NCBI RefSeq assembly: GCF_029960785.1
Contig: NZ_JASBQE010000037.1
Location: 1 to 64,000 of the forward strand
Direction of reading: 5' to 3'
Origin: Polyangium sp. 15x6
GTDB taxonomy: Bacteria > Myxococcota_A > Polyangia > Polyangiales > Polyangiaceae
DNA: 64,000 nucleotides
Below the pieces are notes generated by a model. The model saw only the letters and a list, made by a program, of their open reading frames with translations, ran no database searches and had not been told where the DNA came from. This document shows, piece after piece, positions 1 through 52,526 of the stretch. The position numbers and the translations under genes are program-made. The stretch's first letter is position 1; the number at the start of each line of letters is the position of its first letter.

Positions 1-1
1 G

Positions 2-1462
2 CCCGCAGCCGCGCCTCCCGCGGCCTCCGCGCCCGCAGCCGCCGCCGCGCCGGTGGAAGCGCCCACGCCCGCGCCCGCGCCCGCGAAGCCGCGGATCTGG
101 TCGAAGGGGCGTTTTGCCTGGATCCACCCCCAGCCCGGGGCGAGCCACGCCTGGATCGGATACCTCGCGCTCGGCAGCTCCGTGCCGCTCAAAGGAGGCA
201 GCGTCGAAGCCGCGCGGATCCCAGGTTATGCCGGCTGCGACGCCTGGTACGCCGTCGAGCCGCGCGGTTACGTCTGCGCGGGCGCGACGGCGACGGTCGA
301 CGAAAAGGACCCAGCCATCGTCATCCTGCGTCGCGACGCAGCCGACGTGAGCTCGCCCTGGCCCTACCAGTACGGCGAATCCATTGGCGCTCCGCGTTAT
401 GACCACATCCCGACGCGCGCCGAGCAACGCGAGGCAGAATGGGACCTCGAAAAACACGAGGCCAACGTCGAAAAAGCGCGCGCCGCCGCGGGAGACCCCG
501 CCGCGATCGCCGCCATCGACAAGTCCCTGGTCGGCGTCGACCTCGCCCCCTCCGGCGAGGGTCCGCCCGAGCTTCTGCCCTTTGGCCCCCTCGTCCGGGA
601 AAACCGCAAGTTCGTCCAGCTCGGCTCGACGATCGCGTTCGTACGCGCCTTCGAGTCCGGCGGTCGCACCTTCGTCCTCACGGCCGACCAGGCGATCATC
701 CCGAAAGATCGCATCAAGCCCTACCCACGCTCGACGTTCCACGGCATCTCGCTCGGCGACGACGTGAAGCTGCCGCTCGCCTTCTTCCGGCAGAAGCCGC
801 GTCCAAAATGGAAGCAAGGCGAAGACGGCAAGCTCGTGAAGACCGACGAGACGTTCCCGCGACTCGGCTGGGTGGGCCTGACGGGCTCGCGGATCGAGCA
901 AGACGGCAAGGCGTTCGTCGAGACGAAGGAAAGCGGCATCTACGTACTCGCCGAGGACGCGCAGATCGTGGAGGCCGTCACCGAAGCGCCCTGGCTCGCC
1001 GACAAGGACCCGAACAAGAGCAAATGGGTCGACGTGCGCGTCCTGAACGGGACGCTCGTCGCCTACGAAGGTCTGCGCCCGGTCTACGCGACGATGATCT
1101 CCCCGGGTCGCGGCGGCGTCCCCTATCCAGGCATCGAGCCGCTGAAGACAGCCTCCACCCCCGTCGGTCTCTTCCGCGTCGACGGCAAGTTCCGCACGGC
1201 GACGATGGTGTCGAGCTCGGACGAGAACCTCGTGCATTCCGAGGTGAACTGGGTCCTGAACTTCAGCGGCCCCCACGCACTGCACGGCGCCTACTGGCAC
1301 GACGCCTGGGGCGAGCCGAAGAGCGGCGGCTGCGTGAACCTCGCCCCCACAGACGCCAAATGGGTCTTCGACTGGACCGACCCCGACGTCCCCGAAGGCT
1401 GGCACGGCATGCGCGCCGTGAGGGAGTTCGGTCAGAGTACGATCGTGCGGATCCGGCGGTAG
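2..1462 (+). CDS. L,D-transpeptidase (YkuD domain), 5'-truncated by the window edge
   Basis: Predicted peptidoglycan cross-linking or lipoprotein-anchoring L,D-transpeptidase. The reading frame is open to the first base and begins with an Ala/Pro-rich stretch, typical of a linker after a signal peptide, so the true start lies upstream. The first usable internal start is GTG at 53. The catalytic YkuD region is at the C-terminus: an HG..WH cluster followed by S-G-G-C-V-N-L, with the nucleophilic Cys at residue 427 counted from that GTG (codon 1331-1333). The usual His of the S-H-G-C motif is Gly here. Residues before about 330 contain no domain I can name, though this part is longer than in minimal YkuD enzymes. 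Family knowledge gives the periplasmic reaction (3-3 cross-links); the substrate is inferred. The gene ends just before a block of hairpin repeats and converges on the retron operon. Confidence 0.82.
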   Translation, partial: PAAAPPAASAPAAAAAPVEAPTPAPAPAKPRIWSKGRFAWIHPQPGASHAWIGYLALGSSVPLKGGSVEAARIPGYAGCDAWYAVEPRGYVCAGATATVDEKDPAIVILRRDAADVSSPWPYQYGESIGAPRYDHIPTRAEQREAEWDLEKHEANVEKARAAAGDPAAIAAIDKSLVGVDLAPSGEGPPELLPFGPLVRENRKFVQLGSTIAFVRAFESGGRTFVLTADQAIIPKDRIKPYPRSTFHGISLGDDVKLPLAFFRQKPRPKWKQGEDGKLVKTDETFPRLGWVGLTGSRIEQDGKAFVETKESGIYVLAEDAQIVEAVTEAPWLADKDPNKSKWVDVRVLNGTLVAYEGLRPVYATMISPGRGGVPYPGIEPLKTASTPVGLFRVDGKFRTATMVSSSDENLVHSEVNWVLNFSGPHALHGAYWHDAWGEPKSGGCVNLAPTDAKWVFDWTDPDVPEGWHGMRAVREFGQSTIVRIRR

Positions 1463-1533
1463 ATCGGTAGCGTAGCGCCGGGGTTTCACCCCGGGCCCGA
1501 CCAGGGGCTGTCCGCCCCTGGACCCGGACCAGG

Positions 1534-1931
1534 GCAAGCCCTGGACCTCTGGGCATCGACTGCGCGAAGCGCAGTCGATGCGGGGAAATCTGTTTGTAGC
1601 TATCCGCCCCCTGTGCAGCGCAAGCCCTGGACCTCTGGGCATCGACTGCGCGAAGCGCAGTCGATGCGGGGAGATCTGTTTGTAGCTATCCGCCCCCCTG
1701 TGCAGCGCAAGCCCTGGACCTCTGGGCATCGACTGCGCGAAGCGCAGTCGATGCGGGGAGATCTGATTGTAGCTATCCGCCCCCTGTGCAGCGCAAGCCC
1801 TGGACCGCTGGGCATCGACTGCGCGAAGCGCAGTCGATGCGGGGAGATCTGTTTGTAGCTATCCGCCCCCCCGTGCAGCACAAGTGCTGGACCGCTGGTG
1901 CATCGACCGCGATGCGGTCGATGCAAACGGG
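1534..1931. repeat. Tandem array of about 86-bp hairpin repeats, four full units plus one partial
   Basis: Units begin at 1534, 1620, 1707 and 1793 (86, 87, 86 and about 86 bp), with a degraded fifth unit from about 1879. Each carries a palindrome with arms GCATCGACTGCGC and GCGCAGTCGATGC around a GAA loop (first copy 1553-1581), then a conserved tail ending in TATCCGCCCCC. The fifth palindrome (1900-1924) has a shortened arm GCATCGACCGC with a matching change in its partner and a GAT loop. It sits 11 bp beyond the retron reverse-transcriptase stop and could end that transcript. Related hairpins recur at 51301-51617. The array is open on both strands but shows no domain or codon pattern, so I do not call it coding. 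It fills the whole gap from 1463 to 1935. Confidence 0.9.
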
Positions 1932-1935
1932 AGGC

Positions 1936-3657
1936 TCAGCGGGGAATTTCGAGGAACGCCTTCGCGAGTTGCATCGCTCGCTCGGGGTCGACCATGTTCA
2001 GGTAGGCGATCTTCCCCTGCAGGTACGCCTCGAAATGCGGGATGTTCTCGCGGTTTTGCGCGGCGAGCCCGGTCTTCTTCGCAGCGTGCAGGATCGCGCG
2101 GAGCTTGCGAACCTCCTCGCGCGGCATCCCGAGCTTGTCGTTCACCACGATGCCCGTGACCTCTTGCCGCCCGCCCGCATGCTGCACCCGACCCTTCTTC
2201 GGGTTGATGGCAAACCCCTCCTCCTGCACGATGTGCCGCACCCGCGCGAGCAGGATCCCAAGGTCGCTCCGGCCCTTCTTCTGGCCACCCTTGCCATCGT
2301 CGACGAGCTCGTTCGCCGCGGAGAACGTGAGATCGTCCGCGTACCGCGTGTACGTCCAGCCCATCTTGCGCGTCATGCCCGTGAGGCGCCGATCGAGCTT
2401 GCGCGCGACCAGATTCGAGATCGCCGGACTCGTACACGCGCCCTGCGGCAAACCACGCTCGCCCACCGCCACCCAGTACGTCGTCCCGTCATAGACGACC
2501 TTCCGCCGCGGCGACTCCGTGCAGATCAACGCAAAGATCGTGGCCACCGCAGGCGAGTACCCGATCGACTCGAAGAGCCCACGCACGCGGCCGAACGTGA
2601 TCGTCGGGAAGAAGTCCGAAAGGTCGAGGTTCACCACGGTCCCGCGACCAAGATGCGCCCGCGCATTCGTCACCGTGGATCGCCCCTTCACGAACCCATG
2701 CGCCTCGCCCTCCACCGAGAGCTTCGCGAGCACATTCTGAAGGACCCACTGCTGCGCCTTCGAGAGCGCCTCGTGCGGCGCCGAGAGCAAGCGCGTGCCG
2801 CCCGAGCGCTTCGGCACCTCGAAGTACACGTAATGCGGCTTCTCGACCGCGTCGTTGTGATAGCAGAGCCAGCGCAGCCGCGGGATCGGCACCGAGAGCG
2901 CCTTCGCGACCTCCGCAGGCGTCGACAGCAAGGGCAAACCCTGCTTCCGCAGCTCCTCGACGTTCGCGCGTCGATCGCCGAGGCAGCCGGACACGCCACG
3001 ACCGAGGAAGATGATGTCCTCGGCGCGACGCTTGGCGACGGCCTCCGCGAGCTTCTTCTTCCGCTCGGCCGCGAGCCGCTTCTTCTCCGCCTTGCGCTCG
3101 GCCTTCTGACGGCGAAGCTCCTCGATCGCCGCGTCCGCCTTCTTGCGGGCCACGACGGTCGCCATGCTCGCGGCCTCGTGGTGCTTGAGCCAGAGATCCC
3201 CGACGCGGTGGATCTCCTCGAGCTGCTGCTCCGTGAGCAAGCCGCGCAGGATGAGGCCCCGATCGATCAGCGCCGTCCGCTCGTCGCTCTGCGGCGGGAT
3301 CGTGTCCACGCGCCCGATCCACGCCGTCTGGTACGGGTTGATCTTGAGCGCGCGCTTGCGCATCTCGTCCGCCGACAAACCGAGGATCCCCGACGTGTCG
3401 TACGGGTCCTTCGGCTTCGGTTTGTCCTTCTTCTTCTTGTCGGGCGTCGCCGCCGCCGCCGCCGGCGCAGGGCTCGACGTGAACGTCGCGACCGCCGGGT
3501 TTTTCCCGCCCGCGCCGCTCGTCGTCGAGGTCGAGGACGTCTTCGTCGACGTCGACGCACCGGCTTGCGGTTTGTCGCCCGGCTCGTTTTTCCCGGGCTC
3601 ACCCTCGCCGGGTTTGCCGGTGCCGATGAAGGACTTGACTTTGTCCCAGAAGCCCAC
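1936..3657 (-). CDS. ret: Retron reverse transcriptase with long N-terminal extension
   Basis: This 573-aa enzyme is predicted to copy the msd part of the adjacent ncRNA into branched msDNA. The polymerase core covers about residues 255-570: LDLSDFF (344-350, first catalytic Asp), QGACTSP (405-411), YADD (439-442), then VTG (500-502). Two retron hallmarks are visible, NARAH (331-335, the NAxxH motif) and VTG, and no intron maturase or endonuclease domain follows. The first 240 residues are extra: a Gly/Thr/Pro-rich disordered segment, a Lys-rich patch (74-84) and a charged coiled-coil-like stretch (165-215). Myxobacterial retron RTs are known for N-terminal extensions, and this one is long. 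The start is GTG, chosen because GGGAG lies 5 nt upstream. It is the last gene of a unit with the ncRNA, WHSWIM and HEAT genes. Confidence 0.95.
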   Translation of the reverse strand: MGFWDKVKSFIGTGKPGEGEPGKNEPGDKPQAGASTSTKTSSTSTTSGAGGKNPAVATFTSSPAPAAAAATPDKKKKDKPKPKDPYDTSGILGLSADEMRKRALKINPYQTAWIGRVDTIPPQSDERTALIDRGLILRGLLTEQQLEEIHRVGDLWLKHHEAASMATVVARKKADAAIEELRRQKAERKAEKKRLAAERKKKLAEAVAKRRAEDIIFLGRGVSGCLGDRRANVEELRKQGLPLLSTPAEVAKALSVPIPRLRWLCYHNDAVEKPHYVYFEVPKRSGGTRLLSAPHEALSKAQQWVLQNVLAKLSVEGEAHGFVKGRSTVTNARAHLGRGTVVNLDLSDFFPTITFGRVRGLFESIGYSPAVATIFALICTESPRRKVVYDGTTYWVAVGERGLPQGACTSPAISNLVARKLDRRLTGMTRKMGWTYTRYADDLTFSAANELVDDGKGGQKKGRSDLGILLARVRHIVQEEGFAINPKKGRVQHAGGRQEVTGIVVNDKLGMPREEVRKLRAILHAAKKTGLAAQNRENIPHFEAYLQGKIAYLNMVDPERAMQLAKAFLEIPR

Positions 3658-3729
3658 GGCAACTCCCGCTAGATCGAGGTTGCGACGCGCTTCGCCCGAG
3701 CGCTCGGGCGAGCGATCCTTGATGCACCG

Positions 3730-3772
3730 TTCGACGCGCCGTCCAGCCCTCCAAGGAAGCCCGTCCGCCCGA
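3730..3772 (-). repeat. Retron a2 inverted repeat
   Basis: This 3' repeat of the retron RNA is complementary to 3948-3993. Matching blocks on the plus strand include TTCGACGCG, CGTCCAGCC, CAAGGA and CCGTCCGCCC. It would form the a1/a2 stem that presents the branching guanosine to the RT. Confidence 0.9.
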
Positions 3773-3803
3773 CTACTCGCCTAGGACCACGTCCGATCAC
3801 CGA

Positions 3804-3875
3804 GGCCCTAGGCCCCCTACCGGCATCCAGACCCAAGGGTCCGCTGAGTGGATGCTGGTAGGGGGCTTTAGGGCC
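3804..3875 (-). other. msd long hairpin (DNA stem of the predicted msDNA)
   Basis: The left arm is 3804-3829 and the right arm 3849-3875, with a 19-nt loop. Pairing runs 7 + 10 + 7 bp, interrupted by a G opposite AA and a single A/G mismatch. Small bulges inside a long msd stem are typical of known msDNAs. The lack of a T-tract and the flanking a1/a2 repeats argue against a simple terminator. Confidence 0.9.
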
Positions 3876-3947
3876 AAAAGAACATCGGGCGCGGGGACGC
3901 ATGGGGGAACGAACTCCGCCACGGCGGAACGCCGCAGCATGGTGGGC

Positions 3948-3993
3948 TCGGGCGGACGGACCTCCTTGCAAGGCTGGACGCGAGCGCGTCGAA
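3948..3993 (-). repeat. Retron a1 inverted repeat and branch-point edge
   Basis: This 5' repeat of the retron RNA pairs with 3730-3772. Its inner edge on the transcript reads CCGCCCGA, followed at once by G-C; the AGC there matches the conserved context of the branching G in characterised retrons. Confidence 0.9.
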
Positions 3994-4012
3994 CGAGACG
4001 ACAAGACCATTC

Positions 4013-6124
4013 CTACAACGACTTCCTACCAAGAAGCCAGGCCAGACAGAGGACGGATGCACGCTCGGCGCGGAACCGATCCGCGACGCGCTTCACCTCG
4101 GCGAGCACGTCGGGCGGCAGCGCGAGCCGCTCCTCGACAGCATCCGCAGGCGTACGGGTGGCGAGTAAACGCGCAAGCGTGACGTCCGCGAGCGCGAGCG
4201 CCGTGGTCCACGATCGCTCCGCCTGGATCCGCGGCATGGCCACGTCCCAGGCCTGCTCCAGCACCCGCGACACCGTGGTGTTCTTCCGGTTCGCGGTCTT
4301 GCGGATGTCGTCGAGGATCTGGCGCGGAATCGGAAAACTCTCGCCCGACGACCACTTCGACGCCTTCGCCGGCTCCGGCGCGGGCTCGGGCTTCGGCGCC
4401 TGCGGCAGCGCGCGGCTCGAGAGCACCATCTTGAGCGCGAGCAGATGCCGGCAAGGCCCGGCGCGGAGCCCGCTCTTGTAGAAGTACGAGCACGAGCACT
4501 TCGCCTTCTTGATGGCGAGATCCTCGTCGAAAATCGCCTCGCAGCTCGTGCCCTTCGCCTTGCCGACGACCGCACGCCGGCCGTCCGAGAGCAGCTCGTC
4601 GCGATCGATCGTCACGCCGTTGCCCCGGGCCATCGCGCGGCCCTCGACGAGCTCCGGATGCTCCGGCCCGATGAGCGCCTCGCTCAGCACGGCGGGCATG
4701 ACCTGCCGATAGCGATACACGCGATCGGCGTGGTCGTAGATGAGCTGTCCACGCTTCGCGAGCTGGTGCAGCGCGGGCACGAGGCTCTCCTCGGACGCGC
4801 CCGTCGCCGCGGCGATCGCGGGCAAGGTCGCGCGTTGCTCGTTCTGGAGGAACCGATCGGCCTGCACCATCGTGCGCGCATCCGGCTCGTACGCGCCCGC
4901 GAGCAGATCGAGCCCCGAGCCGCTCGTCCAATCGTTGGTGGTCCAACCGCTCAGCGCGAGCACGAGCCGCATGTCGCCCATGTGCGCGATCCAGATGCTC
5001 GGCAAACCCGAGCCGAGCAGCCGCACCTCGACGCGCTCCGTGAGCGGAAGGACGCGGGCGAGCGCGAAGAGCCGCCGGCGGCCCCAGATCTTGACCTCCT
5101 CGGTGATCTCGCGAGCCACGGCGGGCGCCGAGCGATACGGGCCCAGATGGCCGCCCGCTCCATGGCCGCCGATCTCGAGCCCGCCGTCGTACACGGGGCC
5201 GCGCGACTGGATCTCGATCCCCCACGGATCGAGGATGATCTTCGGCGCCTTGCCCGGCGTGAGCACGAATCGGATGCTGCGCGGCCCGCTCTTCTCGCGG
5301 TGGCGCTTCAGGTGCGCGAGGATCGCGTACACGACCTCGACGGGCAGATCCACGCGGCGGCTCGGCAAGCACGTCGAGGCCTGGATCTGACCGAATCCAC
5401 GCAGCCACGAGGGCGGCAGATCGATCTTCTCCTCGCGGTAGTCCGCCATGCCCTCGACCTTCACGTCGAACCCGGCCGGATCCACGGAGAGGCGCGTCTT
5501 GCGGTAGCTCCGCAGCGTCTGGAAATGCTCGTAGAGCGCGATCGAGTAGTCGACGTTCGTCGTGCCGAGCCCCGCCTCCTGCGAGCCCACGAACGAGTCG
5601 CGGTCCACGGACAAACAGCCGTAGCTCGACTCGTCCTTGGAAAAACACTCGAAGAAGACCACGTCGGGCGCGACGGTCACGACCGGGTCGCACGGCACGA
5701 GGTGGCGGAAGAGCTCGGGATCGTTCCGCGCGAGCTCGTTCGCCCACTTGACGCGCGCGTCCCAGTAGAGGCGATGCATCTTGCGGAAATCGCGGTCGAG
5801 GTTCGGCGGGATCGGCTCCTTCGCGAGGCGCGCGAGCTCGGCCCGCTTGGCCTGATCGAAGAGCTGCGCCTTGAGCTCGGCCTCGCGCTCTTCTTCGGCC
5901 TTCTTCCACGCCTGGTACGCGGTCTTGTCCTTCTTGCGGAACTTGAGATCGCCGACGACCACGTCGTGCAGCGCGCTCATGGCCTCGCGGAAGCGGATCG
6001 CGTCCTTGAGCTCCGCGTCGAAGAAGGTCTTCGGCCGCGCCAGGTTCGGGGAAAAACGCACGAGCAGGCTCTGCGCCGCCCCGAGCACGCCGCTCTTGCC
6101 CAGATAACGGAGATCGACGTTCAC
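4013..6124 (-). CDS. Winged-helix + SWIM zinc-finger protein, predicted retron accessory (WHSWIM)
   Basis: A 703-aa protein predicted to bind nucleic acid within the retron complex. Residues 1-410 are not recognised and include a charged helical stretch (63-105). Residues 415-475 look like a winged helix. Residues 543-560 form a SWIM finger, C-S-C with P-C-R-H (Cys543, Cys545, Cys558, His560). A Pro/Ala linker follows, then two segments (596-630 and 666-699) that resemble ribbon-helix-helix units. The start is GTG at 6124, with AGGAGAGG upstream; it overlaps the upstream TGA as GTGA, so translation is probably coupled. An open extension further upstream overlaps the HEAT gene and is rejected. 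Order HEAT, WHSWIM, msr-msd, RT matches the type XIII retron arrangement as I remember it. Its biochemical role is unknown. Confidence 0.85.
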   Translation of the reverse strand: MNVDLRYLGKSGVLGAAQSLLVRFSPNLARPKTFFDAELKDAIRFREAMSALHDVVVGDLKFRKKDKTAYQAWKKAEEEREAELKAQLFDQAKRAELARLAKEPIPPNLDRDFRKMHRLYWDARVKWANELARNDPELFRHLVPCDPVVTVAPDVVFFECFSKDESSYGCLSVDRDSFVGSQEAGLGTTNVDYSIALYEHFQTLRSYRKTRLSVDPAGFDVKVEGMADYREEKIDLPPSWLRGFGQIQASTCLPSRRVDLPVEVVYAILAHLKRHREKSGPRSIRFVLTPGKAPKIILDPWGIEIQSRGPVYDGGLEIGGHGAGGHLGPYRSAPAVAREITEEVKIWGRRRLFALARVLPLTERVEVRLLGSGLPSIWIAHMGDMRLVLALSGWTTNDWTSGSGLDLLAGAYEPDARTMVQADRFLQNEQRATLPAIAAATGASEESLVPALHQLAKRGQLIYDHADRVYRYRQVMPAVLSEALIGPEHPELVEGRAMARGNGVTIDRDELLSDGRRAVVGKAKGTSCEAIFDEDLAIKKAKCSCSYFYKSGLRAGPCRHLLALKMVLSSRALPQAPKPEPAPEPAKASKWSSGESFPIPRQILDDIRKTANRKNTTVSRVLEQAWDVAMPRIQAERSWTTALALADVTLARLLATRTPADAVEERLALPPDVLAEVKRVADRFRAERASVLCLAWLLGRKSL

Positions 6125-7827
6125 GCCCTCTCCTCCTGGAAGAGCGAAAGCTCCGGCAACTTGCGCCCGATCGCGCTGCGAAGCGCGGGGGCCTGGAAAG
6201 CCGCGCGCGAGACGGCCGCGAGCGCCGCGCGCCGCTCCGGCGGACGCACGCTGCGCAGCGCATACCCGAAGAGCCCCACGAGCGGCTCGGCCTCGCCCGG
6301 GTGCGCCACGATGCGCGCCGCGATCTGCGAGAGCGCCGTGCGCTTCTGCTTCGAGCCGCGGTGCACCGCGAGGATCGTCGTCGCCCAGATCCGCTCGAGC
6401 GTCGCCGGCCCAAGCGCCTTCTCGCGCGCCACGAGGTGCGCGAGGAGAAACGCGCGTACGTCGTCGTACGGGCTCTCCGCGAGAGCCGACCAGAGCGCAG
6501 GATCGTCCTTGAAGCGCACGTCGCGCTCGAAGAGCTGGAGGGCTTCGCGCCGCACGTCGTCGTACCGCGCATCCACGAGGTCCCGGACGTGCGTCATGCG
6601 CGCATCCTTGGAGGTCGAAAGGATCGACACGACCCACTTCGCCGCGGCCTCGCGCACGCGCGGCGCGCGCGCCGAAGCGAGCCGCAACATCGCCTCGATG
6701 CCCTTGATCCCGGCCGTCTTCTTGGTCATGGCCCAGTCGAGCCCGAGCTCGGCGACGGGCGCGACCGGCGAGCACGCGAGGTCCACGCACTGATCGAGCG
6801 TGAGCCGCGCCGGCGCGACGTGCTTCTTGATGGCTTCACAGAGAAAGCCGAGCGCCGTGGGGTTGTCGATCTGGAGCAGCTCCAGCCACTCGGCCACGGA
6901 CAGGCTCGAAATACCCTCGGCCGTGCGCAGGAGATCGGCCGCGAAGACCTGCACCTCCTCGTTCGGGCTTGCGATGAGCGGGCGCAGGCGCGCCATCGTC
7001 AGCGAGCCGAGCTCGCGCGGGTACCACGCCTTGAGGATCTCCACCGCGAACACGCGCACCGTGCGGCTCTTCGCGGTCGTCACGAGCGCGAGCACGCCCT
7101 CGAACGAGCCCTTCCACGCCTCGGGCCAGAGCGGCGCGGGCTCGAGCTCCGCGAGCGAACGGTCCTTCGCCACGCGGATGCCGTCCGGGTGCCGATCGAG
7201 CACGGGCGAGCCGTGATAGAGGGCGTGGAGCAAGCTCCAGGCGTCGAGCAGATGCTCGGGTTTGTCCAGGTGATCGTCGCGGTAGAGCACGAGCGCCTTG
7301 CGGATCGCCTCGCCGTACCGGACGGGATCCTTGCGCCCGATGTCGCGGAAGTAGCGCAGGACGCGGCGGCGCAGGTAGTTGCGCGTGGCCTTCGAGAAGT
7401 GCGGCGCGCTGTCGTTGCGGCCCCAGAAGCGGGTCGGGTGTTTGCCCTCGCCCACGAGCGTGCGCACCTTCAGGGACTGCCGGCTCGACCAGTCGTAGCG
7501 CTGCTTCTCCACGAGCTTGCGCGCGACGAGCCGGTCGAAGGCGACCATGAAGTGACCGACGAGCTCGTCGTCGTGCGCCTTCTCGGCGAGCTTGAAGAGG
7601 CTCTTCACGAGCGGCCGGTGGTGCGGCCTGTCGCAGCCGTCGGCGATGTACGCGACGAGCGTGCGGCGCGCGAACGGACGGCTGTCCTTCATCCACCGAT
7701 CGGCGAGGGATTTGAGCTTCTTGCCCGCCGTGAGCGAGAGGACCTCGTCGACGTAACGGTCGTCGCCCGCCTCCCAGTATTCATCGAGGAGAAGGTTCGA
7801 TCCGGTCCGCGTGCGCGCGTTCGCCAT
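6121..7827 (-). CDS. HEAT/ARM-repeat protein, predicted retron accessory
   Basis: A 568-aa helical-repeat protein, first gene of the retron operon. Much of it, especially after residue 200, consists of paired amphipathic helices of HEAT/ARM type, for example the VRVFAVEIL, VQVFAADLL, VREAAAKWV and VRREALQLF cores spaced about 35-75 residues apart. There is no signal peptide, membrane segment or enzyme motif, so a scaffold or sensor role is likely. The ATG at 7827 was chosen because residues before it in the open frame are low-complexity and unconserved in style. It ends in TGA overlapping the GTG of the WHSWIM gene. Its neighbour on the other side, a pectinacetylesterase gene, is divergent across about 175 bp that should hold the operon promoter. 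The HEAT assignment is by eye; the defence role is inferred from context. Confidence 0.8.
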   Translation of the reverse strand: MANARTRTGSNLLLDEYWEAGDDRYVDEVLSLTAGKKLKSLADRWMKDSRPFARRTLVAYIADGCDRPHHRPLVKSLFKLAEKAHDDELVGHFMVAFDRLVARKLVEKQRYDWSSRQSLKVRTLVGEGKHPTRFWGRNDSAPHFSKATRNYLRRRVLRYFRDIGRKDPVRYGEAIRKALVLYRDDHLDKPEHLLDAWSLLHALYHGSPVLDRHPDGIRVAKDRSLAELEPAPLWPEAWKGSFEGVLALVTTAKSRTVRVFAVEILKAWYPRELGSLTMARLRPLIASPNEEVQVFAADLLRTAEGISSLSVAEWLELLQIDNPTALGFLCEAIKKHVAPARLTLDQCVDLACSPVAPVAELGLDWAMTKKTAGIKGIEAMLRLASARAPRVREAAAKWVVSILSTSKDARMTHVRDLVDARYDDVRREALQLFERDVRFKDDPALWSALAESPYDDVRAFLLAHLVAREKALGPATLERIWATTILAVHRGSKQKRTALSQIAARIVAHPGEAEPLVGLFGYALRSVRPPERRAALAAVSRAAFQAPALRSAIGRKLPELSLFQEERA

Positions 7828-8002
7828 GCGAAGGCCGAGACGATAGGCAAGTTGGACGCGCGCGGTCAAGGGGCATGGCCCTCGCGCCGCAACAACCCCC
7901 AAAAACCTCCGACCATTTCCACCCCCGCTTCCAATCTTCCACCCGAACGGTTCGTCCACGATCCGCGTTGAGCGCGCGCGACCGATCCTTTACGGTGTCT
8001 TC

Positions 8003-9358
8003 ATGAGAGCGCTTCGATTCTCGCCTGGGACGCTTGCCATTCCCCTCGTCTCGCTCCTCGCCGCAGCCGGCTGCGGCAGCGGTGGCGATACCGATCAACT
8101 CTTCAACAACCCGTCGGGCTCGAGCAGCGGCACGTCGGTCGGCGGCGGAGGCGGCGCCGGCGGTGACGGCGGCGCGAGCGCCGGCGGAATGGGCGGCACG
8201 GGTGGGGACGGCGGGATCGGCGGGACGGGCGGCGCCGGTGGCGGAATGGGCGGCTCCGGTGGCTCCGGCGGATCGGGCGGCTCCGGCGGCGGCGGTCCGG
8301 CATGCGCGCCCGAGGGGCCGTTCGACGGCGCGCCCGTCGAGGCCGCGCCCGGGGAATGGACGTGGGTGCCGGTCCCCGAGGCGAAATGCCGCAACGGCAG
8401 CGCCACCGGCTTCGGCGTCCGCATCAACCCGGAATCGACGAAGCTCGTCATCTTCCTCGAGGGCGGCGGCGCGTGCTTCAACGGCACCACGTGCAACATC
8501 AACCCGAGCTCCTTCGGGCAGAGCAACTTCAACAACTGGAAAAACGGCGGCGGGAACAACGGCATCTTCAGCACGTCGAACGCCGCGAACGCCGTCAAGG
8601 ACTGGAGCTTCGTCTACGTCCCCTATTGCACGGGCGACGTGCACGCCGGCAATGCCCCGGACGCCGACGTGCCGGGCACGCTCTCCCCGAAGGGCCAGCA
8701 GTTCGTCGGGTACGCGAACATCGGCCATTACCTCAAGCGCATCATCCCCACGTTCAAGGGCGTGACCGAGGTCCTGCTCACGGGCGTGAGCGCGGGCGGG
8801 TTCGGCGCGTTCTACAATTACGATCGCGTGGCGCAGGCATTCTGCCCCACGCCCGTCGCGCTGATCGACGACTCCGGCCCCCCGATGGGCGACACCTACA
8901 TGGCGCCCTGCCTGCAGCAGCGCTGGCGCGATCTCTACAACTTCCCGGACACGCTGCCCGCCGACTGCGCCGAATGCACGCTCCCGAACGGCGGCGGCCT
9001 CGCCAATGCCTGGAAGCTCCTCGGTCAGAAATACCCCGAGGCCTCGCTCGGGCTCGTCTCGTCCGACAAGGACAGCACGATCTCGCAGTTCTATGGCTAC
9101 GGGAAGAACGACTGCCAGAACATCGACGGCCTCTTCCCGTCGGCGCTCAGCGGCGCTGAATACACGGCGGGCCTCGAGGAGATCCGCGAGAGCTTCCTCA
9201 AGCAATCGCCCGCGTGGAGCAGCTATTTCGTGAGCGCCACGACCCATACCTACCTCGGCGGCAATGGTTATTACAACACCAACGTGGATGGTACGGCGTT
9301 GAGCGGCTGGGTGAAGGGGATCGTCGACGGCGCGGCCGCCACCCACGTCGGGCCGTAA
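8003..9358 (+). CDS. Pectinacetylesterase/Notum-like lipoprotein esterase
   Basis: A 451-aa predicted carbohydrate (pectin-type) O-deacetylase exported as a lipoprotein. The signal peptide ends in a lipobox with Cys24. A Gly-rich linker of about 55 residues (45-98) then tethers the catalytic domain. Residues 148-160 read V-I-F-L-E-G-G-G-A-C-F-N, the family's oxyanion-hole region, and GVSAGG places the nucleophile at Ser263. A late HTYLGGNGYY segment carries the probable catalytic His. The length and motifs match the PAE family. Whether the substrate is pectin or another acetylated polysaccharide cannot be told. The gene is divergent from the retron operon; the next gene on the same strand starts 81 bp later. 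Confidence 0.88.
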   Translation: MRALRFSPGTLAIPLVSLLAAAGCGSGGDTDQLFNNPSGSSSGTSVGGGGGAGGDGGASAGGMGGTGGDGGIGGTGGAGGGMGGSGGSGGSGGSGGGGPACAPEGPFDGAPVEAAPGEWTWVPVPEAKCRNGSATGFGVRINPESTKLVIFLEGGGACFNGTTCNINPSSFGQSNFNNWKNGGGNNGIFSTSNAANAVKDWSFVYVPYCTGDVHAGNAPDADVPGTLSPKGQQFVGYANIGHYLKRIIPTFKGVTEVLLTGVSAGGFGAFYNYDRVAQAFCPTPVALIDDSGPPMGDTYMAPCLQQRWRDLYNFPDTLPADCAECTLPNGGGLANAWKLLGQKYPEASLGLVSSDKDSTISQFYGYGKNDCQNIDGLFPSALSGAEYTAGLEEIRESFLKQSPAWSSYFVSATTHTYLGGNGYYNTNVDGTALSGWVKGIVDGAAATHVGP

Positions 9359-9439
9359 CGAAACGGCAGGCGGATCAACTTTCCGCTCTTACCGAATTTT
9401 CCGGGTGCCAGGGGCGGCACCCTGGACTATGTTCCGCCC

Positions 9440-10036
9440 ATGAACAGCACGCGCACCTATTTCCGCCGCGTTGCGGTCTACTGCGGGTCCTCCGGCGGCG
9501 TCGGGACGCATTACCTCGACGCCGCCCGCGCGGCCGGCGCTTACCTCGCCGAACGCGGCATCGATCTCGTCTACGGCGGCGGCCGCGTCGGCATGATGGG
9601 CGCCGTCGCCGAAGGCGCGCTCATGAAAGGCGGCAAGGTCTACGGCGTCATCCCCGAGAAGCTCAAGTCCCGCGAGCTCGCGCACGAGGGCCTCACCGAG
9701 CTCTTCATCGTCGACAGCATGCACGCCCGCAAGACCATGATGGCCTCGATGGCCGACGCCTTCATCGCCCTCCCCGGCGGCTGGGGCACGCTCGAAGAGG
9801 TCTTCGAGGTCGTGACCTGGTCGCAGCTCAACTACCACAAGAAGCCCGTTGGCCTGCTCAACGTGCGCGGCTACTACGATCACCTCGTCGCATTCCTCGA
9901 TCACGCCATGACCGAGGGCTTCATCCGCCCCATTCACCGCCCCCTCTGCGCGTCGGCGGATTCGATGGAAGCGCTCCTCGACCGCCTCTCGAAGCTCCAG
10001 ATCCCCGATATCGGCCGGTGGATCGACAAACCTTGA
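9440..10036 (+). CDS. LOG-family nucleotide phosphoribohydrolase (TIGR00730 type)
   Basis: A 198-aa Rossmann-fold protein of the LONELY GUY/lysine-decarboxylase-like family. In characterised members this enzyme cleaves cytokinin riboside monophosphates or ordinary nucleotide monophosphates to free base and ribose 5-phosphate. The N-terminal VAVYCGSS strand, VYGGGRVGMMG loop, MHARK and the PGGWGTLEE motif (active-site PGGxGTxxE) are all present, and length is normal. It is cytoplasmic. The UbiB-like gene begins 35 bp downstream, so the two may be co-transcribed, but a shared pathway is not evident. A cytokinin role should not be assumed in a bacterium; nucleotide salvage or detoxification is equally possible. 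Confidence 0.9.
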   Translation: MNSTRTYFRRVAVYCGSSGGVGTHYLDAARAAGAYLAERGIDLVYGGGRVGMMGAVAEGALMKGGKVYGVIPEKLKSRELAHEGLTELFIVDSMHARKTMMASMADAFIALPGGWGTLEEVFEVVTWSQLNYHKKPVGLLNVRGYYDHLVAFLDHAMTEGFIRPIHRPLCASADSMEALLDRLSKLQIPDIGRWIDKP

Positions 10037-10070
10037 ACCGACCCCGCCCGATCCCCACACCCTCGCCTCG

Positions 10071-11357
10071 ATGACCGACGAACGAAAAATCCCGGAAGGA
10101 CGCCTGGGAAGGCTCGCGCGGCTCGCCGCGGTCGGGGCGCGCACGGGCGCGAGCCTGATCCGCGGGACATCGGCCGCGGACGCGGCCGCGCACAAGGCCG
10201 CCGAGATGCTCGGCACGCTCCGCGGGCTCGCCGCGAAAGCCGGGCAGATGGCGAGCTACGTGGACGGCATGGTCCCCGAGGCGCAACGCGAGGCCTACGA
10301 GACGGCCATGCGCAAGCTCCGCAATGCGGCGCCGACGTCGTCCCCGGCGGCCATCCGCGCCCGGGTCGAGGAGGAGCTCGGGGCGCCGATCGACAAACTC
10401 TTCGCCGAATGGGACGAGCAGCCGTTCGCGAGCGCCTCGATCGGCCAGGTGCACCGAGCGCGGCTCGACGACGGCCGCGAGGTCGCCGTGAAGGTGCAGC
10501 ACCCCGGCATCGAAAAGGCCGTCGAGAGCGACCTCGAGAATGCCGACGTCCTCGGCGGCATGGTCGCGGTGCTCGGGCCGAAGCGCCTGGAGCCCAAGGC
10601 CGTGCTCGCCGAGCTCCGGGCGCGCTTCACCGAGGAGCTCGATTACGAGCTCGAAGCCCGGAGGCAGCGGGCGTTCACGGCGTTGCACCAGGGCGACCCG
10701 GCGATCCGCATTCCCGAGGTCATCACCGAGCGGTCGAGCAAGCGCGTGCTCACGAGCCATCTCGTGACCGGAAAAACCCTGGAAGAGGCCTGCGAGGCGG
10801 ACCAGGCCATCCGCGAGCGTTATGCCGACACGCTCTGGCGGTTCGTCTTCAAGGGCAACCTCGTCGGCGGCATGTTCAACGCCGACCCGCACCCCGGCAA
10901 TTACCTCTTCCAGGACGACGGCTCGATCATCTTCCTCGATTTCGGCTGCGTGCAGCCCATCGAGGGCGAGCGGCTCACGCTCGCGCGAAACCTCCACCTC
11001 GCGGCGCTCCGCCGGGACGAGCTGGCGTTCGGCGACATCGCCACGAAGATCCTCCTCACGGAGGGCGGCACCTACGAGCGAATGGCGGTCGCGTACTCGC
11101 GCCGCTGCTTCGAGCCGATCTTCGCCTCGCCGTTCCGGATCACGCGGCCCTACGCGGCGAGCCTGGTCGACGGCATCCGGGAAATGAAGGACGAGGTGCT
11201 GTTCAAGAAAGACGGCAACTTCGTGCAGCTTCCGCCCGGCATGCTCTTCATGAACCGGCTCCAGTTCGGCTTTTATTCGGTCCTCGCCCGCCTCGAAGTG
11301 ACGATCGATTACGCGGCCGTGGAGGAGAAGTTCCTGCGGGAGGCGAGGCTCGTCTGA
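10071..11357 (+). CDS. ABC1/AarF/UbiB-family atypical kinase
   Basis: A 428-aa UbiB-family protein, by family knowledge an atypical ATPase/kinase linked to isoprenoid-quinone or lipid metabolism. Visible motifs are K-x-G-Q (AAKAGQ, about residue 46), the ASIGQVHRA signature replacing a P-loop (about 123-131), AVKVQHPG with the ATP-binding Lys, NADPHPGNY (catalytic loop) and LDFG (metal-binding). No transmembrane helix is obvious at the C-terminus, unlike E. coli UbiB. The start is ATG, 35 bp after the LOG gene. No quinone biosynthesis genes are near, so its specific partner is unknown. Confidence 0.9.
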   Translation: MTDERKIPEGRLGRLARLAAVGARTGASLIRGTSAADAAAHKAAEMLGTLRGLAAKAGQMASYVDGMVPEAQREAYETAMRKLRNAAPTSSPAAIRARVEEELGAPIDKLFAEWDEQPFASASIGQVHRARLDDGREVAVKVQHPGIEKAVESDLENADVLGGMVAVLGPKRLEPKAVLAELRARFTEELDYELEARRQRAFTALHQGDPAIRIPEVITERSSKRVLTSHLVTGKTLEEACEADQAIRERYADTLWRFVFKGNLVGGMFNADPHPGNYLFQDDGSIIFLDFGCVQPIEGERLTLARNLHLAALRRDELAFGDIATKILLTEGGTYERMAVAYSRRCFEPIFASPFRITRPYAASLVDGIREMKDEVLFKKDGNFVQLPPGMLFMNRLQFGFYSVLARLEVTIDYAAVEEKFLREARLV

Positions 11358-11411
11358 TGCGAGGGCCGTTGTGAAACGCGCCCGTCGGCTTATACTCCGC
11401 CGAGGTCCGTG

Positions 11412-11996
11412 ATGCAGAGGCTCCCCCTTCCCTTCCTCATGCTCGCCCTCTTCGCGCCTGCTTCCTGCGGCTACGAGGAGCCGGACATGCCCTCCCAGGA
11501 CGCGCTCTACGACGAGCCGTGGAGGCCGAACGACTTCTACCTGCAGGGCTCGGGCGGGCACGTCGTCAACGCGACCATCGGCGAGGGGACGGCGATCGGG
11601 CCGGTCGTCAACGTCGGCCTCTACGCCGAGGACGACGGCAAGGCCCTGCGCGGCCTCGTGCTCGGCAAGACGCTGAGCGCCTCCGTCCGCGGCTCCGCGA
11701 TCGAGGGGCTCTGGGGCGCCGAGCCGCTCCGGCTCCGCGTGACGCGCATGGAAAAGCGGCAGCACGTCGAGGGCCTGCTCCGCGGCCGCATCACCGATCT
11801 CTGGATCGGGCCCGAGGCGATCACGGGGACCGTCGGCCTCTGCGGATTCGATCTCGCGCGACGCGGGCACATTTACGAAGGGTCGCTACGTTGTGGGGGT
11901 TCGATGGAGCTCGTGAGCGTCCGGATCCCCGAGACGTTCGCGAGCTGGGGCGAGACCGCCTCGGCCGCGATGGTGGCTCTGCTCCTCTCGGGTTGA
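11412..11996 (+). CDS. Small predicted lipoprotein, unknown function
   Basis: A 194-aa exported protein with a short hydrophobic signal and an APASC lipobox (Cys19). The ATG at 11412 is preferred over the GTG one codon earlier because CGAGG lies 6 nt upstream. The mature part is beta-rich (alternating Val/Gly, for example NATIGEG and PVVNVGLYAED) with two late cysteines (CGF and RCGG) that could pair. I recognise no family. It lies 54 bp after the UbiB-like gene on the same strand. About 165 bp with no gene I can support separate it from the sigma factor. Confidence 0.7.
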   Translation: MQRLPLPFLMLALFAPASCGYEEPDMPSQDALYDEPWRPNDFYLQGSGGHVVNATIGEGTAIGPVVNVGLYAEDDGKALRGLVLGKTLSASVRGSAIEGLWGAEPLRLRVTRMEKRQHVEGLLRGRITDLWIGPEAITGTVGLCGFDLARRGHIYEGSLRCGGSMELVSVRIPETFASWGETASAAMVALLLSG

Positions 11997-12162
11997 GCGC
12001 CTGCACATCATTCGTATTCGACGCCTGGGGTAGCCCCCTCGCCCGAAATTCTTTTGCGCGCCCCCCTTCCGGAGGCACGAGAGATGCTTACGTTCCGTAA
12101 CCCGGCGAGCATCACCCTCCGCCGCGTCTTTCGCCGGGCTGGACGCGGGCCTGGAGACCACA

Positions 12163-51300: not shown

Positions 51301-51617
51301 GGCCGCTGCGCCGGGGCGCCGCCCCGGACCCCGCGGGGGCTGTTCGCCCCTCGACCCGAACCAGCGCAAGCGCTGGACCTCAGGGGGAAGAACTGCGCGA
51401 TGCGCAGTTCTTCCCACAGGCCGGTGCCAAGACCAGGGACGGCGTTGCCGGTCACGACGGTCTTGGCTGGCAGCGTCGCCCGCCGGTCTTGCCTCGGCCC
51501 GTTCGATGAACTGCGCATCGCGCAGTTCATCGACCCCGGGTCCAGCGCTTGCGCTGGTCCGGGTCCAGGGGCGGATAGCCCCTGGTGGGGCCTGGGGCAA
51601 CGCCCCAGCGAAGCGCC
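51301..51617. repeat. Hairpin-rich intergenic repeat region
   Basis: This 317-bp gap has no gene I can support. It holds a perfect 14-bp stem with GAT loop (51385-51415, arm GGGAAGAACTGCGC), a 9-bp pair with a 24-nt middle (51426-51467, GCCAAGACC) and a perfect 13-bp stem with ATC loop (51504-51532, arm CGATGAACTGCGC). The flanking text (CGCAAGCGCTGGACCT and GGGTCCAGG-type runs) matches the blocks around the 1534-1931 array, so both belong to one dispersed repeat family. Confidence 0.8.
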
Positions 51618-52526
51618 TCAGAACGTGCCGACGATCATCGCCGCGCCCCCGCCCGGCAAGGGCGCGACGACCGGCCGGACGACCGGCCCGCGGGCGGCCG
51701 CCTCTGGCTTCTTTTCGCCGCCGCTCGTGAAAAATAGCGCGGCCGCGACGCCCAGCGAGGCGACCCCCACGCCGAGCGACACGTCCCCGAGGATCAGCTT
51801 CGTCTTCACGGCATCGACGTCCGTCTCGGCGCAGCTCTGCGTGCGGCCGCAACCGTCGCGGAGCCCCGCGAGATCGGACTTGCCCGTGATCCCGAGATAA
51901 GCGAACGCCCCGAGCGACACCACCCCGAGCCCGCCGAGCACGTACGAGGCCACGCGTTTCCCGGACGGGCCCGAGCCCGGCGCCGCGGGTTTGTCCGGGT
52001 CCGCGCCCGGAGGCGCCTGGGCGGGCCCCTCCAGATCTAGCGTGATCACGCGATTCTTCTCGCCGACACGGATGACGACCTGCCGCTCGACCGGCGTCTC
52101 GTTCGGCGCGACGAACCTGAGCGTGTGGGGCCCCGGGTTCACCGCAATGGGCTGGCCGTCGAGTGTCTTCGTGAGGACGGCGCCGTCGAGCGTGACCTCG
52201 GCTGTGACGACGTCGTTGCCCCGCGCGTCGCGCAAGCCCGGGACGATCGTCGGCAGGCTCGCCTCGACGCGCGGGAGCATGGTGGCGCATTCGTCGCGCA
52301 CGACGGCGGGGCAGGCCTCGGCGCTGCACGCGACGAATTTTCCGCGCGCCTCGACGAGGCGACCGGCTTTTTCGAGCTCCTGACCCTCCTCGAACGCGGC
52401 CGCGCACTGGGCCTTGCGCGCCGGATCGGGCGGGGCGGCGTGCGCCGGCGTGGCTCCGAACGCCGCGGCGACGAACAGGGCGGCGAAGAGGAACCGCGGG
52501 GCGAAGAGGGGTCTCGACGTGGGCAT
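51618..52526 (-). CDS. PEGA-like exported protein with two C-terminal membrane segments
   Basis: A 302-aa protein. Sec signal ends near AHAA. The first part (Cys at AQCAAAF, ACSAEACP, DEC) is a short helical region. The middle (about 95-165) is a PEGA-like beta domain (GNDVVTAEVTLDGAVLTKTLDGQ, then PGPHTLRF). Two hydrophobic segments follow, SYVLGGLGVVSLGAFAYLGI and VSLGVGVASLGVAAALFF, flanking a small Cys-containing loop. Same type as the PEGA protein at 44032-45267. ATG at 52526 is preferred over TTG two codons earlier. Orientation in the membrane and role are unknown. Confidence 0.8.
   Translation of the reverse strand: MPTSRPLFAPRFLFAALFVAAAFGATPAHAAPPDPARKAQCAAAFEEGQELEKAGRLVEARGKFVACSAEACPAVVRDECATMLPRVEASLPTIVPGLRDARGNDVVTAEVTLDGAVLTKTLDGQPIAVNPGPHTLRFVAPNETPVERQVVIRVGEKNRVITLDLEGPAQAPPGADPDKPAAPGSGPSGKRVASYVLGGLGVVSLGAFAYLGITGKSDLAGLRDGCGRTQSCAETDVDAVKTKLILGDVSLGVGVASLGVAAALFFTSGGEKKPEAAARGPVVRPVVAPLPGGGAAMIVGTF

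What the first reader, a model, noticed from the sequence alone, without database searches (positions are those of the whole stretch)
1534..1931. Tandem hairpin repeats with compensatory arm changes
Four near-identical units and a degraded fifth keep base pairing even where arm sequence changed (CTGCGC/GCGCAG versus CCGC/GCGG) and the loop moved from GAA to GAT. Kept pairing suggests selection on an RNA or cruciform structure, next to the RT stop.
Basis: partly seen in the sequence, partly recalled or inferred. Interest (0 to 1): 0.55.

Follow-up and report, generated by a model that had tools for sequence, protein, structure and literature searches.

The report
Dispersed hairpin repeat behind stop codons
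The hairpin array is a locally multiplied copy of a short non-coding repeat found at well over a hundred places in this Polyangium genome, mostly just behind stop codons between genes that point at each other, where it probably spreads as a passenger and may serve as the hairpin at the ends of messages.

Summary
Four near-identical hairpins (29 nt, GAA loop) and a fifth (25 nt, GAT loop) are modules of a four-hairpin cassette (A-B-C-D) that starts 5 nt behind the transpeptidase stop codon (1468) and ends 10 nt before the reverse-transcriptase stop codon (1925). The fifth is not degraded: the 25-nt form (GAT or GGT loop) stands at 30 other places in this 13.4 Mb genome. The four are tandem copies of a module found at four other loci here and at over 100 stretches in Polyangium sp. 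6x1. The family was found in 6 of 6 Polyangium genomes and 0 of 33 genomes of other genera. In a fixed-rule 400 kb sample, 8 of 13 placed copies lie between convergent genes. Orthologous gaps may be empty in one species and filled in another. Arms covary strongly family-wide, but almost only between Watson-Crick pairs (G-U 18, A-C 21 of 6490 cells). This speaks against selection on one RNA strand and for DNA-level palindrome maintenance or use on both strands. Nothing ties it to retron function. Best reading: a new BOX/BIME-like modular intergenic repeat, probably tolerated or used as a two-way 3'-end hairpin.

The parts
1468..1925 (+). whole expanded element: A-B-C-D29 followed by three B'-C'-D29 units and a terminal B'-C'-D25
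   Evidence: R1 hit 1468-1582 at 121 bits; TRF 1530-1911; sequence
1478..1494 (+). hairpin A, CCGGGG-TTTCA-CCCCGG
   Evidence: sequence; aligned in 38 cassettes
1501..1521 (+). hairpin B, CCAGGGGC-TGTCC-GCCCCTGG
   Evidence: sequence; arms covary in the family
1529..1544 (+). hairpin C, CCAGGGC..GCCCTGG; the copies in units 2-4 carry a C-C mismatch
1553..1581 (+). hairpin D29, unit 1
1639..1667 (+). hairpin D29, unit 2
1726..1754 (+). hairpin D29, unit 3
1812..1840 (+). hairpin D29, unit 4
1899..1925 (+). hairpin D25 (terminal, common form), 12-nt arms
   Evidence: (I12)
1530..1911 (+). tandem array, period 86-87
53..1462 (+). L,D-transpeptidase (YkuD) gene, 3' end abutting the element (stop codon 1460-1462)
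   Evidence: PF03734 1.8e-12
1936..3657 (-). reverse transcriptase of a type XIII retron, 3' end facing the element
   Evidence: PADLOC RT_XIII 3.1e-155
51301..51618 (.). second family member in the window: an inverted pair of cassettes (+ then -) between convergent genes
   Evidence: R1 hits 87.8 and 106.8 bits; context

Best explanation
This is one copy of a dispersed, non-coding modular repeat that I found only in the genus Polyangium. A cassette of four palindromes (A-B-C-D, about 112 nt) occurs singly, as an inverted pair with both A ends outward, or, as here, with its B-C-D part multiplied in tandem. SHOWN: it is dispersed (14 elements in 400 kb sampled); it sits mostly close behind stop codons and mostly between convergent genes; orthologous gaps may be empty or filled, and filled gaps can differ in architecture; variants of its modules are recombined among copies; its arms stay almost exactly complementary. 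INFERRED: it spreads as a non-autonomous element or by recombination or conversion among copies, mover unknown. It is tolerated at gene ends because it disrupts nothing there, and its hairpins probably serve both flanking transcripts as 3'-end structures (blocking 3' exonucleases or helping Rho or pausing), taking the place of short native hairpins seen in some empty sites. The four D29 units are recent tandem duplications (slippage or unequal crossing-over). The arm change D29 versus D25 is a difference between two older module types, kept complementary by template-directed correction of palindromes, by two-strand selection, or both.
For: Both arm forms recur: 41 places, of which 8 are D29 (5 loci), 31 D25 and 2 other. 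Context: of 60 elements, 39 convergent, 14 tandem, 1 divergent, 6 unclassifiable (sample chosen by hits); fixed-rule sample: 8 of 55 convergent, 4 of 189 tandem, 1 of 51 divergent gaps, and 11 of these 13 elements within 33 nt of a stop codon. All 17 inverted pairs are + then -; in its 7 tandem pairs the stop-codon side is -3 to 17 nt away and the start-codon side 37-244. Orthologous convergent gaps: 13 comparisons filled in both, 3 only here, 5 only in the relative, 20 empty in both; divergent 0 of 39, sequences. Transpeptidase-RT junction filled in 6 of 6 genomes, five builds. Tandem D29 neighbours: 3 here, all in this array, 23 in G002, 1 in G003, 0 in G001, G004, G005. All four combinations of variants in 10 of 15 feature pairs.
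Against: No mover identified; the one Y1 transposase hit is partial and no cassette was found in the 3.2 kb around it. No target-site duplication seen at the best comparable site (by eye). No T-run terminator in 1463-1935, and no RNA data, so the 3'-end role is inferred from position alone. Only 8 of 55 convergent gaps carry one, so it is not a required part of gene ends. Some copies are not near a stop codon on the A side (e.g. L045 3564, L048 6891, L055 13129; L123 and L125 15082). Hairpins in element-free convergent gaps are only modestly above chance (5 of 15, about 1.0 expected), and tandem gaps of 61-150 nt are above chance too (8 of 44, 3.85 expected).
Confidence: 0.6

Rival explanations
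1. Purely neutral or selfish repeat: it lands or is copied anywhere and survives only where it breaks neither coding sequence nor promoter, i.e. between gene ends; it does nothing for the host.
For: Presence/absence differences, genus restriction, species-specific D29 expansion, module reshuffling. Position can be explained by purging alone, because most convergent gaps are short (38 of 55 under 100 nt).
Against: The transpeptidase-RT gap is filled in 6 of 6 genomes, and so are two other convergent gaps in the stretches compared. Some empty sites hold another hairpin at the same spot.
Confidence: 0.27
2. One-strand structured RNA (attenuator or ncRNA) under selection for pairing.
For: Strong covariation, strong folding, loop-to-linker coupling TCC/GGA or TTC/GAA in 122 of 122 parsed cassettes. 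In the small unfitted alignment A1, G-U (11) exceeds A-C (4) among 1243 cells, although these appear to come mostly from rows aligned out of register (the two L058 rows and L005).
Against: In 203 distinct cassettes G-U is 18 and A-C 21 of 6490 cells, while tRNAs in the same loci show G-U in 23 of 246 bracketed pairs and B. cereus terminators are reported with 4.02% G-U and 68 of 76 resolved A-U/G-C switches through G-U (PMC5381666, passages). Of 555 double-change cells 350 are switches that cannot pass through G-U, 205 can. Singles lie in both orientations between convergent genes.
Confidence: 0.08
3. DNA-level site for supercoil relief or protein binding (cruciform, gyrase, nucleoid protein) at convergent transcription junctions, as proposed for BIMEs (recalled).
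For: Near-exact, strand-symmetric palindromes, convergent location; REP sequences are described as frequent between convergent genes, where positive supercoils gather (PMC1525189, passages).
Against: No binding protein or site identified here; four hairpins with differing arms do not suggest one binding sequence.
Confidence: 0.12
4. REP/BIME proper, moved by a RAYT transposase.
For: Palindromic, over 100 copies, extragenic, single and inverted doublets; complementary changes are also reported for REPs (PMC2817692, passages). A GTAG or GTGG stands just before hairpin A in 23 of the 38 cassettes of A1.
Against: At the exact head position the motif is in only 28 of 125 cassettes of A5; one partial Y1_Tnp hit in the genome and no R1 hit in its locus L112. 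RAYTs were not sought in the relatives.
Confidence: 0.05
5. Part of the retron (its ncRNA or a regulatory tail).
For: It lies 10 nt from the RT stop codon, and the RT is beside the same gene in 6 of 6 genomes.
Against: The retron's own inverted repeats lie on the other side of the RT gene (3728-3995). In G001 the junction holds one ordinary 112-nt cassette. The family lies behind many other genes.
Confidence: 0.02

Closest known systems
BOX elements of Streptococcus pneumoniae and S. suis (boxA-boxB(n)-boxC)
   Same: Modular, short, interspersed, stem-loop forming; an inner module is present in variable tandem number; insertions and lengths vary between genomes (PMC3049150, passages).
   Different: Sequence and host unrelated; four palindromes; GC-rich; inverted-pair form; concentrated behind stop codons of convergent genes; no target-site duplication seen, whereas BOX has TIRs and TSDs according to that paper.
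REP/BIME with RAYT transposases
   Same: Over 100 extragenic palindromes, inverted doublets, often between convergent genes, complementary arm changes (PMC2817692 and PMC1525189, passages).
   Different: No strictly conserved GT(A/G)G head (28 of 125 at the exact place), no RAYT found in this genome, larger four-hairpin unit.
ERIC, Correia/NEMIS and RIME elements (recalled, no call)
   Same: About 100-200 bp, conserved, palindromic, taxon-restricted, in transcribed intergenic DNA, as far as recalled.
   Different: Not compared here.
Bidirectional intrinsic terminators
   Same: Hairpins between the ends of convergent genes.
   Different: No T-run next to the stems; copies are clearly homologous and dispersed rather than arising locally.

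Membership tests
BOX-like modular interspersed repeat | dispersed short non-coding element with an inner module in variable tandem number | tested here: met
   0 to 4 D29 units per copy
BOX-like modular interspersed repeat | insertion presence/absence between related genomes | tested here: met
BOX-like modular interspersed repeat | terminal inverted repeats and target-site duplication | tested here: not met
   single cassette ends are not inverted copies; no duplication by eye at the one well aligned site. Hence an analogue, not a member of BOX proper
REP/BIME (RAYT) | GT(A/G)G head before the palindrome | tested here: not met
   28 of 125 cassettes at the exact place in A5; 23 of 38 near it in A1: frequent in one subset, not conserved
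REP/BIME (RAYT) | RAYT gene flanked by inverted copies in the genome | tested here: not met
   one partial Y1_Tnp match, no cassette in its locus; own genome only, draft assembly
MITE | terminal inverted repeats, target-site duplication, parent transposon | tested here: inconclusive
   inverted pairs have long inverted arms, singles do not; a parent element was not searched for beyond Y1_Tnp
Intrinsic transcription terminator | GC-rich hairpin directly followed by a T-run | tested here: not met
   none of the 5 sites found in 1..8000 lies in 1463-1935
Intrinsic transcription terminator | transcripts end there | not testable with these tools
   no RNA data
Rfam family | match above a family's gathering score | tested here: not met
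   window 1..12000, E up to 1: only sR32 at 8398-8455, 20.7 bits against a gathering score of 40

The most novel reading that the evidence does not exclude
A mobile element that replaces gene ends: a hairpin cassette that spreads by inserting at, or recombining into, the native hairpin just behind stop codons, so that convergent gene pairs exchange their own 3'-end structure for a standard two-way cassette, which is then remodelled by swapping modules among copies.
Probability: 0.2. Interest if true: 0.65.

Novelty: new member of a known kind. Interest (0 to 1): 0.4.

Why it matters
It adds a large family (at least 150 cassettes found in this genome, several hundred elements by extrapolation) to the modular palindromic repeats of bacteria; the titles and abstract starts that my searches listed describe none in Polyangium. 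Its filled and empty orthologous sites make it possible to test how such elements move and whether gene ends can be rewritten by repeats. The near-absence of G-U wobble in these hairpins also shows that covariation in palindromes is not by itself evidence for a functional RNA. And it may explain some assembly breaks in these genomes.

Tried and rejected
Rejected: (1) retron part: wrong side of the RT and dispersed family. (2) REP/RAYT: no RAYT found in this genome, head not strictly conserved. (3) Canonical terminator: no T-run. (4) Known Rfam RNA: none above gathering in 1..12000. (5) 'Single-event copy error': both arm forms recur genome-wide. (6) One-strand RNA selection: G-U not in excess over A-C in the large set; the small unfitted set A1 shows 11 against 4, which I put down mostly to rows out of register, unproven. 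The tRNA control (11 tRNAs) shows only bracketed pairs, so it speaks about G-U but not about A-C. (7) Loop-linker coupling as proof of a pseudoknot: the same letters also form an alternative inverted repeat GTCCG..CGGAC, so it proves nothing about RNA.

Rows dropped before counts and biases: one search used 77 of the 105 matches (left out: matches under 50 bits, hits cut at locus ends in L049 [93.8 bits], L064 and L026, and L074, which repeats L051). One search used 26 of the 28 matches (left out window 1832 and 45281); one further element, L114 120, lies at a stretch end and has no gap. One search used 53 of the 65 matches (left out the 12 in L134-L138, the junction shown). One search parsed 122 of 125 rows; the 3 unparsed ones show TCC/GGA by eye. 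One search used 203 of 323 alignment rows (98 duplicates, 10 short, 10 with few cells, 2 under 80% Watson-Crick; recounted). One search used 36 of the 38 rows of A1. Most of the A1 cassettes were collected through intact D arms, so D pairing in A1 and in model R1 is favoured by selection; alignment A5 was fitted to the structure, which leans towards pairing. Gene calls are from my own codon-usage script, not a published caller.

Papers: PMC3049150, PMC2817692, PMC5381666 and PMC1525189 were seen as passages only; PMC8604942 and PMC7202029 only as listings with the start of the abstract; all others as listings. Searches for a description of such repeats in Polyangium or myxobacteria: (0 papers); nothing in the titles and abstract starts listed describes it, but I opened none of the myxobacterial papers, and only open-licence papers are held.

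Full report
WHAT IS THERE. The window is bases 1-64000 of contig C206 of an unnamed 13.38 Mb genome. The finding is confirmed: a tandem array at 1530-1911, period 86, four hairpins D29 and one D25. The element is longer than described: it begins at 1468, 5 nt after the stop codon of a YkuD transpeptidase gene (53-1462), with hairpins A, B and C, and ends at 1925, 10 nt before the stop codon of a type XIII retron RT gene on the other strand (1936-3657). The spacer between D29 units reads as a degenerate B hairpin (GGGG..GTAGCTATCCGCCCCC) followed by a C hairpin, so the repeat unit is B'-C'-D29 and the whole is A + (BCD)n (my reading of the sequence). The repeated units differ at a few spacer positions while their D arms are identical; hairpin C in units 2-4 has a C-C mismatch, whereas the last unit has CAGCAC/GTGCTG, fully paired.

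IT IS A DISPERSED FAMILY. The arm pattern occurs at 41 places in the genome and the pattern read backwards at none; 8 are D29 (5 loci), 31 D25 (14 with a GAT and 17 with a GGT loop, the window's own included) and 2 other. Around nearly all of them lies the same four-hairpin cassette (an exception is L039 5791). A covariance model R1 from 38 cassettes finds at least 150 copies in the genome (the cap). It finds the family in 6 of 6 genomes of the genus and in 0 of 33 genomes of other genera of the family and order (97 first-look candidates scored per genome). In 20 stretches of 20 kb chosen by a fixed rule, mostly on large contigs, it finds 23 cassettes, which I group as 14 elements; by extrapolation (inference) that is about 470 elements in the genome. 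Copies come as singles and as inverted pairs with the A ends outward; all 17 pairs have this order, 15 of them 305-357 nt long and two 579 and 593 nt.

WHERE IT SITS. With a codon-usage gene caller (coding fraction 0.86 in the window, 0.84 in the sample), 60 elements of a sample chosen by hits split into 39 between convergent genes, 14 between tandem genes, 1 between divergent genes and 6 unclassifiable. In the fixed-rule sample 8 of 55 convergent, 4 of 189 tandem and 1 of 51 divergent gaps hold one, the last in a 3.7 kb stretch without called genes. The A end lies -8 to 22 nt from a stop codon in all 29 single convergent cases. In its 7 tandem pairs the stop-codon side is -3 to 17 nt away and the start-codon side 37-244 nt. 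Not all copies obey: L045 3564, L048 6891 and L055 13129 have no stop codon close to the A end. In the fixed-rule sample 11 of 13 elements lie within 33 nt of a stop codon; L125 15082 (57 and 51 nt) and L123 do not.

IT COMES AND GOES. Orthologous gene pairs were compared with five other genomes of the genus over three stretches, and with one of them over a fourth. In convergent gaps: 13 comparisons filled in both, 3 filled only here, 5 filled only in the relative, 20 empty in both. In tandem gaps: 2, 3, 0 and 97. In divergent gaps: 39 empty in both. Examples: a gap of 28 nt here is 128 nt with one cassette in G004 and 359 nt with a pair in G002; a gap of 10 nt here is 642 and 648 nt in G005 and G003 (there the end of the left-hand gene also differs between species). 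No duplication of target letters was recognised by eye; at the best aligned site the element seems to replace a few native letters rather than to split them. Some empty sites hold an unrelated perfect hairpin, e.g. GGCGGGCCCGAGAGCCCGCC. Among element-free convergent gaps of 20-150 nt, 5 of 15 hold a perfect stem of 7 or more, about 1.0 expected from shuffles; tandem gaps: 1 of 40 (20-60 nt, 0.54 expected) and 8 of 44 (61-150 nt, 3.85 expected); divergent gaps: 2 of 14, 1.16 expected (small numbers). One convergent case counted as filled only here is a 313-nt gap in G005 in which R1 found nothing; what it holds was not examined.

THE SAME JUNCTION IN SIX GENOMES. The gap between transpeptidase and RT holds a family member in all six genomes, in five builds: one plain cassette (G001, 120 nt), a cassette with an extra hairpin inserted after A (G004), an inverted pair with a D29 module (G002), two successive inverted pairs (G003 and G005 alike, about 950 nt), and the D29 array (this genome). 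Tandem D29 neighbours occur 3 times here (all in this array), 23 times in G002, once in G003 and not in G001, G004 or G005. So the array looks like a lineage-specific expansion of an inner module at a site that already carried the element (inference). Variants of the modules occur in all four combinations for 10 of 15 feature pairs, which points to exchange among copies (inference).

WHAT THE KEPT PAIRING MEANS. Family-wide, pairing is kept far beyond both controls: A5, 121 distinct rows, 99.0% of cells paired, 555 double-change cells (shuffles 159; slides 29-67), covariation 0.363 (shuffles 0.100); the weakest measure, further pair types, is 43 against 37.0, reached by 4 of 500 shuffles. The plain MAFFT alignment A1 agrees: 98.4%, 35 double-change cells against 5.6. 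Biases: A1 was collected largely through intact D arms, and A5 was fitted to the structure. The kind of change is unlike that in a one-strand RNA. Over 203 distinct cassettes, 6490 cells: 6404 Watson-Crick, 18 G-U, 21 A-C, 47 other. G-U pairs are 0.3% of cells, against 23 of 246 in 11 tRNAs found in the same loci and 4.02% reported for B. cereus terminators, where 68 of 76 resolved A-U/G-C switches passed through G-U (PMC5381666, passages). Of the 555 double-change cells 350 are switches that cannot pass through G-U and 205 can; cells are copies, not events. Against this reading, A1 alone has 11 G-U and 4 A-C in 1243 cells; these appear to come mostly from the two L058 rows and L005, which the plain alignment places out of register. 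A G-U on one strand is an A-C on the other, so almost exact Watson-Crick pairing is expected if the palindrome is kept as DNA (arm homogenisation by template switching between inverted repeats; PMC8604942 and PMC7202029, abstract starts in a listing) or if both strands' RNAs matter, as they would between convergent genes. My data do not separate these two. The B-loop and the B-C linker are coupled (TCC with GGA 101, TTC with GAA 21, mixed 0 of 122), again without the wobble intermediate.

HOW IT MOST LIKELY WORKS. Shown: dispersed modular palindromic element, mostly at gene ends, with presence/absence and remodelling between species and near-exact palindromes. Inferred: it spreads as a non-autonomous passenger or by recombination among copies, survives at gene ends, and is probably used there as a two-way 3'-end structure. 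Against an intrinsic terminator in the strict sense: none of the terminator-like sites in 1..8000 lies in the element. Against a RAYT origin: one partial Y1 hit with no cassette in its 3.2 kb locus, and a GT(A/G)G head at the exact place in 28 of 125 cassettes of A5, though near it in 23 of 38 of A1.

COMPARISON WITH KNOWN KINDS. By design it works most like the BOX elements (modular, inner module in tandem, variable insertions; PMC3049150, passages) and shares location and symmetry with REP/BIME sequences (PMC2817692 and PMC1525189, passages). It is not a member of either as tested above. I therefore file it as a new member of the broad kind 'interspersed modular palindromic repeats'. I found no description of it in the titles and abstract starts listed by my searches of a library that holds open-licence papers only.

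Noticed in passing
window 1936-7959 and 3728-3995: Complete type XIII retron: RT (RT_XIII 3.1e-155), SWIM protein (6.8e-167) and HEAT/ARM protein (8.3e-192). Upstream of the RT lie a long inverted repeat (3728-3772 with 3948-3995) and an inner 18-nt stem (3812-3829/3849-3866) that look like the retron's a1/a2 and msd hairpin (labels recalled).
   Followed up: partly
L145-L150; L151-L156: The retron RT is present beside the same transpeptidase gene in 6 of 6 genomes of the genus, and a second RT, 45-47% identical to it, is also in 6 of 6: both look vertically inherited in the genus.
   Followed up: no
own genome contigs C155, C184, C201, C173, C241, C271, C33, C115 (starts) and C242, C77, C198, C273, C22 (ends): At least 13 of the 150 listed family matches lie within about 310 nt of a contig end (contig lengths from other calls): the repeat probably breaks short-read assemblies.
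   Followed up: no
L039 about 5791-5900; L278 (G005, at the gap orthologous to L131 14158-14194): A second hairpin-cluster repeat (..GTGAATCGGCCGGGCTTTGCC..GAGAGGGGGACGCGAGGCGTCCCCCTCGGGA) with a preceding hairpin whose arms differ (GATC against GAGCTC) between two copies: perhaps another family of the same kind.
   Followed up: no
L134 junction; L046 5592-5752; L274 and L284 gaps: A separate hairpin GGGGCTACGCTCGG..CCGAGCTACGCCCC (with small variants) occurs alone in some gaps and inserted inside cassettes between A and B.
   Followed up: no
cassette hairpin B and B-C linker, e.g. window 1510-1529: B-loop TCC/TTC and linker GGA/GAA are coupled in 122 of 122 parsed cassettes; pseudoknot, alternative hairpin or templated copying are all possible.
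   Followed up: partly
Polyangium sp. 6x1 (109 of the loci L157-L271): The D29 module is at over 100 stretches in this species against 5 loci in the window's genome: a species-specific burst.
   Followed up: partly
window 53-1462: The transpeptidase gives 17-18 matches per genome of the genus, so it belongs to a set of related genes.
   Followed up: no
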